Part shown: positions 28,962 through 31,430 of the stretch, piece by piece
Numbering within the stretch: the first letter of the stretch is position 1
Layout of the letters: each line of letters opens with the position of its first letter
From: a bacterium
Lineage (GTDB): Bacteria > B130-G9
Assembly (NCBI GenBank): GCA_021160245.1
Contig: JAGHCW010000226.1
Coordinates: 1 to 53,308 of the forward strand
DNA: 53,308 bases
Direction: 5' to 3'
The notes under the pieces: model-generated
Databases searched by the model: none
What the model was told of the DNA's origin: nothing
The model's input: only the letters and a program-made list of their open reading frames with translations
Translations under genes and position numbers: made by a program

Positions 28962-29085
28962 TCAATTAGAAGACCTGGCCACGCGGAGACCGATGTTGAA
29001 GTACCGGTACCTCGGGTCGTACCTGTAGCGGGCGGCGGAACGGCAGTACCGGGCGAGGTTGTACCAGCTGCCGCCGCGTATGACC
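28962..29085 (-). other. candidate variable region (DGR-like codon pattern)
   Basis: This is the 3' end of the FGE-fold gene. From RGGSW to the end, the solvent-exposed ligand positions are encoded almost only by NNC codons (TAC, AAC, CTC, GCC, TTC). All six tyrosines are TAC, whereas the rest of the ORF has six TAT and three TAC. This is what adenine-specific mutagenesis of AAC codons produces in diversity-generating retroelement targets, for which this fold is a known substrate. No reverse transcriptase or template repeat is seen in the window. Confidence 0.45.
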
Positions 29086-29873
29086 CGGCGCGAGCCACTA
29101 CCAGGCCCCGTTGGATCAACACCGGGACTGCTACCATAATAGTCCTCACCGTACCAATCCGAACACCACTCCCATACATTTCCGTGCATGTCGAACAGGC
29201 CCCACGCGTTCGGCGCCTTCTGACCAACATCATGCGTCTTGCGCCGTGAATTCCCAGCATACCAACCGGCTCGGCCAAGTTCAGAATCCGAATCGCCTGT
29301 ATTGAACCGAGTCGTCGTCCCTGCTCGACACGCATACTCCCATTCCGCCTCGGTAGGCAGGCGATAAATCGCGCCGCTCTGACCAGACAACTTCCCGCAG
29401 AACTCAACCGCGTCATTCCAACTTAAACTCTCGACAGGATGACTGCTGCCCTTGAAATGCGACGGATTCTTCCCCATCACCCGCTCATACTCGGCCTGCG
29501 TCACCTCGAACTTCCCAAGCCAGAAGCCCTTGGCGATCCGAACCGTATGAAGCGGCCCCTCGTTGTTAAATCGTTTTTTTTCAGACTTCGGCGAGCCCAT
29601 CCAAAACTCGCCGGGCGGAATCCAAACGAACTTAATCCCGTCAAATGTCCGCTCCTCGCCGGGCTTGGAGCCCTGGACCACTTTGAATGACTCGGGGACC
29701 TGCCAGTGTTCCAACCGCTCCTCTGCCTGCCGTCTGAGCTGGTCGTCATCCTTACTGTATGGATTGCTCTCTGGGAACGCTTTCAGAAAGGAGCGCCAGA
29801 CCTCGAGTTTCTCGGCCGCCTCCATAAGATCATTCTCATCGTACTGCATGGCGCGGTTGAACGCGGCTTGCAT
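28962..29873 (-). CDS. FGE-fold protein, in frame with the upstream caspase gene
   Basis: 303 residues counted from the first ATG. The frame is open back to a TAA at 29937-29939, which is also the stop of the caspase gene, so the two coding regions are separated by one stop codon in the same frame. Residues 1-75 repeat the C-terminal helical module of the caspase ORF (ESNPYSKDDDQLRRQAEERL versus ASNPYSDQDKELRKVAGERV). An FGE/C-type-lectin-like domain follows: IPPGEFWMGSP, EVTQAEYERVMGKNPSHF, YRLPTEAEWEYACRAGTTT, GLFDMHGNVWEWCSDWYG, RVIRGGSWYNLARYCRSAAR. Only one of the two FGE active-site Cys positions is Cys (the other is Asn), so it is probably a ligand-binding domain. No good RBS precedes the ATG. 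Confidence 0.85.
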   Translation of the reverse strand: MQAAFNRAMQYDENDLMEAAEKLEVWRSFLKAFPESNPYSKDDDQLRRQAEERLEHWQVPESFKVVQGSKPGEERTFDGIKFVWIPPGEFWMGSPKSEKKRFNNEGPLHTVRIAKGFWLGKFEVTQAEYERVMGKNPSHFKGSSHPVESLSWNDAVEFCGKLSGQSGAIYRLPTEAEWEYACRAGTTTRFNTGDSDSELGRAGWYAGNSRRKTHDVGQKAPNAWGLFDMHGNVWEWCSDWYGEDYYGSSPGVDPTGPGSGSRRVIRGGSWYNLARYCRSAARYRYDPRYRYFNIGLRVARSSN

Positions 29874-29936
29874 CTTGCGCTGCCATTCAGTCCATTGCTC
29901 CTTCGCCTTCTCCCTCTGCTTCAGTACGTCGTCGTA

Positions 29937-31430
29937 TTACCTCGATACTTCCACTCGTGGCGGAGGTGGAGGGACGGCAATTGTCGCCTTTTTCTTCACG
30001 GCTTGCGCCCGCTTGGCCCAGAAATCAACCCTCTCGCCCGCAACCTTGCGGAGCTCTTTGTCCTGGTCCGAATAGGGATTCGACGCGGAAAAGCCGTCCA
30101 GAAAATTCTCCCACAGCTCAGCCCTGTCCTTGGGACCGAGATGCTCGTTCTGCTCGTAATCCAGAAGCCGTTGGAATTCATCGGCCATCTTCGCCTGCCA
30201 CAAGGCCCAGTGCTTTTTGGCCTCAATCAGCTTGTCCACGTCGCCAATACGGCCGGGCTTCGGTGGAGGCGGAGGAATCACCGGAGCCGGAGACTCTGTG
30301 TCAACAGCTGCGATTCGCTCAGCTGCTTGTTTGACGGCAGGTTTCGGCTCCTCGACCGCTGAGATCGTGCTTGCTTGACTTGTGACTGTCGCTCTCGCGG
30401 GACGCACGAATCTGCGAGTAACAAGCAGAATGAGGACAATCAGGAGCGAGCCGGCGCCCAGACCCAATGCGACTGCGTTTGTTTTGAGCCAACCTTGCTG
30501 CCCGGGGACAACCCCAGGGACAGCCTGGAAAGGCCGTCCTACACCGGGCTTGAAGCGGGCGAGGCGCCATGTGTTGAAGCCTGAGCCTTTGTTGTCGATC
30601 CAGGGGATTTGTTCGGCTTGCCCACGCAGCTCTTTTATGACCGCCGCGTTCACGGTCGATTTAAGATAAGCGTCAATGCCCCCTAGGGTCAGGTCCCCAT
30701 TCCTATTTAGCGCCTCAGCGGCGCCGCTTAAGGCTTGAGTAAGAAAATATGAGAAAAAGCCCCGGTTCTCGCCGGGATACTCGTAAGCAACGTGATCGGG
30801 CTTGCACGCATAGAGGACGGCGGAGAAACTGATGCCGCCGCGACCGGGCTTGGGCGTCATCGTCAAGCCCTTGCTGAACGCCGCTGAGAGTTTCGTTCCC
30901 ACTCCGTCGCCTTTTGCCGCAAGCACCGGCTTGTTCCGGCAAGCGTCAACGATGATCACCTTCTTTGAGGCGCGAATGCGATCGAGCATCGAGTGGAGGT
31001 CGCCGAGCGCGAGGCAGCTCATCTGGATATTGTTCGCTGAATTGACGTTCGCCTCCTGCGTCAGAAGGTATTGCTCATTATTCTGCGTAACCCCATGACC
31101 TGAGAAGTAGAAGAAAAACGCATCCTCCGAATTGATCATCTTCGCAAGGTGCTCGAGCACTGAGGCGATGTTCGTCTTGTAGGGTTGATGGTCGGCGTCG
31201 CGGTCGCTGGATAGGTAATAGACGTTTGTCTGGTCAAAGCCACAGAATTGCGTGAGGGCGGCACCAACGCCAACGACGTCATTAACGGCTCCTTTGAGCT
31301 CGCTTATGCGGCTGGAGTTGTACTTGTTAATGCCAACGAGCAGTGCGTAGCGCTCCTCGGCAAGGCCCGCAAGCGGAACCACTATCGCCACAATTAGAAT
31401 TAGGATTATGAGACCCGTTCGCTTAGTCAT
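29937..31430 (-). CDS. membrane-anchored caspase-family (C14) protease
   Basis: 497 residues. A signal anchor (LIILILIVAIVVPLAGLA) is followed by a caspase domain, residues 25 to about 290. ERYALLVGINKY opens it; the catalytic His112 lies in FYFSGHG and Cys164 in VDACRN. A second membrane segment (about 318-338) is followed by the basic TRRFVRPAR, which suggests that the caspase domain is outside and the C-terminus inside. Proline-rich linkers (IPPPPPKPGR; VPPPPPRVE) flank a helical module at 395-475 that recurs at the start of the next ORF. The reading frame continues past TAA into the FGE-fold ORF. This may be a nonsense-split caspase-FGE protein. Caspase plus FGE fusions are known in bacteria. 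Confidence 0.9.
   Translation of the reverse strand: MTKRTGLIILILIVAIVVPLAGLAEERYALLVGINKYNSSRISELKGAVNDVVGVGAALTQFCGFDQTNVYYLSSDRDADHQPYKTNIASVLEHLAKMINSEDAFFFYFSGHGVTQNNEQYLLTQEANVNSANNIQMSCLALGDLHSMLDRIRASKKVIIVDACRNKPVLAAKGDGVGTKLSAAFSKGLTMTPKPGRGGISFSAVLYACKPDHVAYEYPGENRGFFSYFLTQALSGAAEALNRNGDLTLGGIDAYLKSTVNAAVIKELRGQAEQIPWIDNKGSGFNTWRLARFKPGVGRPFQAVPGVVPGQQGWLKTNAVALGLGAGSLLIVLILLVTRRFVRPARATVTSQASTISAVEEPKPAVKQAAERIAAVDTESPAPVIPPPPPKPGRIGDVDKLIEAKKHWALWQAKMADEFQRLLDYEQNEHLGPKDRAELWENFLDGFSASNPYSDQDKELRKVAGERVDFWAKRAQAVKKKATIAVPPPPPRVEVSR

What the first reader, a model, noticed from the sequence alone, without database searches (positions are those of the whole stretch)
28962..31430. 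Caspase and FGE-fold coding regions share one frame, interrupted by a single TAA
31430 to 28962 is one continuous frame of 823 codons with only TAA at 29937-29939 inside. The same helical module (NPYS...D...LR..A.ER) lies on both sides of the stop, and the proline-rich linker continues up to it. The first downstream ATG (29873) is 63 nt later, has no RBS in register and leaves 21 codons of clear homology untranslated. This points to a nonsense-split or readthrough caspase-FGE protein, or to a consensus error, rather than two designed genes.
Basis: seen in the sequence. Interest (0 to 1): 0.8.

Follow-up and report, generated by a model that had tools for sequence, protein, structure and literature searches.

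The report
Caspase-receptor gene cut by stop codon
One bacterial gene for a protein-cutting enzyme joined to a variable binding domain has been cut in two by a single stop codon, most likely a recent mutation or an assembly error; intact single-frame relatives exist in the same genome and elsewhere.

Summary
Positions 31430-28962 (-) are one frame: 497 codons, a single TAA (29937-29939), 324 codons, then TGA. The upstream half is a caspase (Pfam C14) with the His-Cys pair, two hydrophobic segments and a proline-rich linker with one helical module. The downstream half is a second copy of that module plus an FGE-fold domain. A paralogue in the same genome (C165) carries caspase (76% identical) and FGE (62%) in one unbroken frame; an unrelated genome (G238) has caspase-linker-module-FGE in one frame. 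The single-chain fusion is therefore the likely ancestral form, and is already published. The 21 codons after the TAA look coding, and no ATG, GTG or TTG with a good ribosome site follows. No further stop has accumulated, so the break is young or artefactual.

The FGE-fold domain is a DGR-type variable domain: its differences from a template in a sister genome concentrate at template adenines (17/32 against 5/64). Readthrough is disfavoured: UAAU context, RF1 and RF2 present, no genome-wide excess of coding sequence after TAA. One caveat is a conserved tRNA-Gln-like gene upstream of gatE with a UUA anticodon. Reads are needed to separate a real allele from a consensus error.

The parts
29937..31430 (-). 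Upstream ORF, 497 aa: caspase effector half, ending in the in-frame TAA
   Evidence: Peptidase_C14 E=1.7e-23
31353..31430 (-). N-terminal signal peptide or membrane anchor (residues 1-26)
   Evidence: Hydropathy 3.0 at residues 6-24
30591..31352 (-). Caspase p20-like domain with SGHG (His112) and DACR (Cys164)
   Evidence: residues conserved with the C165 paralogue
30420..30480 (-). Second hydrophobic segment, about residues 317-337, possible transmembrane helix; absent from C165
   Evidence: Hydropathy 2.7
29997..30248 (-). Helical module, copy 1, preceded by a PPPPPKP linker
29937..29939 (-). The single in-frame TAA, +4 base T (UAAU)
29685..29936 (-). Helical module, copy 2; first 21 codons lie before any ATG, GTG or TTG start
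   Evidence: predicted helix 1 spans the stop position (low confidence)
28962..29936 (-). Downstream open frame, 324 codons plus TGA (ORF from first ATG: 29873-28962, 303 aa)
28974..29630 (-). FGE-sulfatase-fold (C-type-lectin subtype) domain
   Evidence: PF03781 E=2.8e-53; best solved match is Treponema denticola variable protein 1, 2y3c, E=5e-41
28989..29089 (-). DGR-type variable region, 80% identical to the AAC-rich template at G002:C247

Best explanation
This is one gene for a membrane-anchored caspase effector joined by a proline-rich linker and two helical modules to a C-terminal FGE/C-type-lectin-fold binding domain. A single substitution produced an in-frame TAA at the start of the second module. 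The intact protein most likely works as a sensor-effector: the lectin-fold domain, whose binding surface was varied by a diversity-generating retroelement, binds a ligand and the tether passes this to the caspase (inferred). With the TAA, the ribosome stops after residue 497, so an anchored caspase with one module is made and the sensor half is made little or not at all. The TAA is either a recent real nonsense allele (about two thirds within this reading) or a consensus or strain-mixing error (about one third). Shown here: the single frame, the intact paralogue, coding character directly after the stop, lack of a good standard start, no second lesion, and the variable-region signature. Inferred: signalling, membrane topology and loss of function.
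For: Intact paralogue in the same genome: C165 caspase 76% and FGE 62% identical in one 781-codon frame, with dN/dS about 0.18 and 0.22 in the two halves, so both were under similar constraint. Other single-frame caspase-FGE proteins: own C204, and its relatives G001:C16 and G003:C269. G238:C41, 705 aa, caspase-linker-module-FGE in one frame. Literature: 33 prokaryotic metacaspases carry an FGE domain (PMC3501461). The 21 codons after the stop score as coding and match module 1. A neutral frame of this length would be expected to gain another stop by about 0.06 substitutions per site. No frameshift is involved.
Against: No read data and no same-species or same-locus orthologue, so artefact and real allele cannot be separated, and a short stop-fixed history cannot be excluded. 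The downstream frame is fully open, as expected too if it is still translated. A CTG at 29924 with a GAGG-type site could in principle restart translation almost directly.
Confidence: 0.78

Rival explanations
1. Two genes by design (fission): the caspase half and the FGE half are separate proteins, the second started by reinitiation at ATG 29873 or a non-standard CTG at 29924, and they may reassociate through their shared helical modules.
For: Both halves are open; CTG 29924 lies 13 nt after the stop with anti-SD pairing of -7.2 kcal/mol; the same module on both halves could allow pairing.
Against: No ATG, GTG or TTG in the first 21 codons, which are coding-like and homologous to module 1. Starting at 29873 would delete most of predicted helix 1. 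The paralogue and G238 are single-frame.
Confidence: 0.12
2. Functional readthrough: the UAA is decoded, for example as Gln by the tRNA-Gln-like RNA with anticodon UUA (G000:C103), giving some full-length protein.
For: A tRNA with anticodon TTA exists in this genome. Its acceptor stem UGGGGCG/CGCCCCA with G73 equals that of tRNA-Gln(TTG). The gene is conserved next to gatE in four genomes.
Against: UAAU is the strongest bacterial terminator (PMC5289835). RF1 and RF2 are both present. TAA ends 141 of 636 gene-like ORFs, and coding-like extensions after TAA (7.9%) are no commoner than after TGA (7.5%) or TAG (9.7%). The tRNA has a pyrimidine at position 37, a broken anticodon-stem pair in G000, A1.A72 in three relatives and C33 in G002, so it may not decode.
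Confidence: 0.07

Closest known systems
Prokaryotic metacaspase/orthocaspase-FGE-sulfatase fusion proteins (PMC3501461), including cyanobacterial variants with transmembrane helices between the domains
   Same: N-terminal Peptidase_C14 with His-Cys dyad and C-terminal FGE-sulfatase fold on one frame
   Different: Interrupted by one TAA; carries two copies of an uncharacterised helical module with no Pfam match
DGR variable proteins of the FGE/C-type-lectin subtype (Treponema TvpA, 2y3c; cyanobacterial orthocaspase-CLec variable proteins, PMC7517822; putative antigen sensors, PMC10907252)
   Same: C-terminal FGE-subtype lectin fold with variable positions matching template adenines; orthocaspase N-termini are reported
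   Different: No DGR reverse transcriptase found in this genome or its three family members; the AAC-rich template was found only in the sister genome G002

Membership tests
Caspase (Peptidase_C14) family | Profile match over the curated cut-off | tested here: met
   83.9 bits against a 21.4 cut-off
Caspase (Peptidase_C14) family | Catalytic His-Cys dyad | tested here: met
   SGHG His112 and DACR Cys164 present and shared with C165; activity not tested
Metacaspase-FGE fusion | Both domains in one uninterrupted frame | tested here: not met
   TAA at 29937-29939 separates them here; met in C165, C204 and G238
FGE-sulfatase fold | Profile match over the cut-off | tested here: met
   180.6 bits against 23.3
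Formylglycine-generating enzyme (catalytic) | Both active-site cysteines | tested here: not met
   Aligned to 6muj and 2q17, the first Cys (SYLCHDSYC) is Asn here (SWYNLARYC)
DGR variable protein | 3'-terminal variable region differing from a template mainly at template adenines | tested here: met
   17/32 A positions changed against 5/64 others, P=1.7e-6; the template is in sister genome G002, and fold conservation contributes to the contrast
DGR variable protein | DGR reverse transcriptase in the genome | tested here: not met
   Only group II intron-like RVT_1 matches in G000, none in G002; all are fragmented drafts, so absence is weak
Genetic code with UAA reassigned | UAA not used as a genuine stop; RF1/RF2 changed | tested here: not met
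   TAA ends 141 of 636 ORFs; RF1 and RF2 present

The most novel reading that the evidence does not exclude
The TAA is a regulated switch: a tRNA-Gln-like suppressor (anticodon UUA) encoded upstream of gatE reads it at low level, so that a membrane-anchored caspase is made alone by default and joined to its hypervariable sensor only when Gln-tRNA supply or this tRNA's expression allows.
Probability: 0.04. Interest if true: 0.9.

Novelty: new member of a known kind. Interest (0 to 1): 0.38.

Why it matters
By itself it is one damaged, or mis-assembled, member of a known caspase-FGE architecture, and annotators should not record two designed genes here. The useful by-products are that this caspase carries a DGR-type variable recognition domain, extending caspase-coupled hypervariable sensors to another phylum, and that the phylum conserves a tRNA-Gln-like gene with nonsense anticodons beside gatE, which makes possible UAA/UAG decoding directly testable.

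Tried and rejected
The search for close orthologues in genome contigs gave only distant caspases, at most 41% identity. The helical module has no Pfam or PDB relative; its only other clear occurrence is G238. DGR reverse transcriptase search: only group II-like RT fragments in G000 and an unrelated RT in G001. No intact template in G000: the one non-FGE hit, C172:36651, is a degenerate remnant. Genome-wide recoding of TAA was tested and rejected. Folding of the module pair without an alignment gave mean pLDDT 61.5, used only as a hint. PADLOC gives a generic caspase match and no defence system. Literature searches on GatDE and natural suppressor tRNAs found nothing matching the tRNA.

Full report
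OBSERVATION. The minus-strand frame 31430-28962 is as described: 497 codons from ATG, one TAA at 29937-29939, 324 more codons, then TGA. The upstream ORF matches Peptidase_C14 (E=1.7e-23) and the downstream frame FGE-sulfatase (E=5.9e-53). Two copies of a helical module, 39% identical, lie on either side of the stop. The first ATG is at 29873; its anti-SD energy (-3.0 kcal/mol) is near the random mean, while the start at 31430 has -6.5.

IS IT ONE GENE? Three results say so. First, the window's own genome (G000, 244 contigs, window = C27) has a paralogue on C165 whose caspase (76% identical) and FGE domain (62%) lie in one unbroken 781-codon frame. dN/dS is about 0.18 for the caspase and 0.22 for the FGE part, so both halves have evolved under similar purifying selection. 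Second, caspase-FGE proteins in one frame recur: own C204 and its relatives in G001 and G003, and G238:C41 from another lineage, which has caspase, linker, the same helical module and FGE in 705 aa. C19 in this genome may be another, with a degenerate caspase-like N-terminus that was not scanned. Third, the architecture is published: FGE-sulfatase was found in 33 prokaryotic metacaspases, some with transmembrane helices between the domains (PMC3501461).

THE STOP. The 21 codons after the TAA have a coding score of 0.39 bits/codon (gene mean 0.19) and align to module 1. Among 53 gene-like ORFs with coding-like in-frame extensions in 0.86 Mb of this genome, no other has strong coding sequence directly after the stop with no usable start. 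A low-confidence fold of the module pair, with TAA read as Gln, puts the stop at the start of helix 1 of module 2 (102-138); starting at the ATG would lose most of that helix. There is no second stop or frameshift. By substitution counting, a neutral frame of this length would have a 95% chance of a new stop by about 0.06 substitutions per site. The lesion is thus recent, or it is a consensus error. There are no reads to decide, and no same-locus orthologue in the three family members or in genome contigs.

READTHROUGH. The context is UAAU, held to be the strongest terminator in bacteria (PMC5289835). RF1 and RF2 are both present. TAA ends 141 of 636 ORFs, and coding-like extensions are equally frequent after TAA (11/140), TAG (23/236) and TGA (19/252). 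Against this stands one unexpected result: a tRNA gene with anticodon TTA in this genome, at C103:34135, just upstream of gatE. The same gene stands upstream of gatE in G001 (CTA), G003 (TTA) and G002 (CTG). Its acceptor stem equals that of tRNA-Gln(TTG). But position 37 is a pyrimidine in all four, 1-72 is A.A in three, and G002 lacks U33. It may be a non-decoding tRNA-like RNA. It keeps readthrough alive as a minor rival (0.07).

WHAT THE DOWNSTREAM DOMAIN IS. It is not a catalytic formylglycine-generating enzyme: the first active-site Cys is Asn. The best solved relative is Treponema denticola variable protein 1 (2y3c, E=5e-41), a DGR target. Sister genome G002 holds an AAC-rich template-like repeat at C247:7365-7485 outside any FGE gene (SWNNNAQNCRSANRKRNNPRNRNNNNGFR). 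Apart from itself, its best match in the four genomes is this window's gene (80% over 101 nt). Differences fall on 17 of 32 template adenines and 5 of 64 other bases (P=1.7e-6). Because conserved residues of the fold coincide with non-adenine positions, the P value overstates the case, but the AAC-rich repeat outside an FGE gene is the signature of a template. No DGR reverse transcriptase was found, so the system may be lost, or absent from these draft assemblies. Orthocaspase-CLec variable proteins are known in cyanobacteria (PMC7517822), and such domains are proposed sensors of invaders (PMC10907252).

MECHANISM. Shown: domain content, the His-Cys dyad, an N-terminal hydrophobic segment plus a second one after the caspase, the linker and modules, and the variable region. 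Inferred: an anchored caspase regulated by ligand binding to the C-terminal lectin fold. The TAA uncouples effector from sensor.

VERDICT. Observation confirmed; interpretation supported; ordinary in kind (a nonsense-interrupted or mis-called member of a known fusion family), with two by-products of more interest: the DGR link and the gatE-linked tRNA.

Noticed in passing
L231:136-210 (G000:C103:34135-34209); L241:1506-1580; L242:1505-1579 (-); L243:1500-1574: tRNA-Gln-like gene directly upstream of gatE in all four genomes of the phylum, with anticodons UUA, CUA, UUA and CUG; pyrimidine at 37 in all, A1.A72 in three. A possible natural suppressor, or a tRNA-like element tied to gatE.
   Followed up: partly
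L238:12301-14247: GatE, the subunit of the archaeal-type GatDE amidotransferase (NCBIfam 549 bits, cut-off 456), in a bacterial genome, with homologues at the same place in G001-G003.
   Followed up: partly
L177:7365-7485 (-) (G002:C247): AAC-rich DGR template-like repeat outside any FGE gene, near a contig end; no reverse transcriptase seen on the contig.
   Followed up: partly
G000:C172:36651-36716 (L311:1501-1566): Degenerate, non-coding remnant of a template-like or variable-region-like sequence near a contig end in the window's own genome.
   Followed up: partly
window:19148-20401 (+): A second FGE-fold protein in the window, whose 3' end also differs from the G002 template mainly at adenines (22/32 against 15/64).
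   Followed up: partly
G002 and G000, whole genomes: Large expansion of FGE-fold domains in this phylum: 63 match stretches in G002 and about 19 in G000.
   Followed up: no
G000:C17:12404-12796 (-): Another FGE-fold frame interrupted by one in-frame TAG, with other lesions nearby; looks like a decaying paralogue.
   Followed up: no
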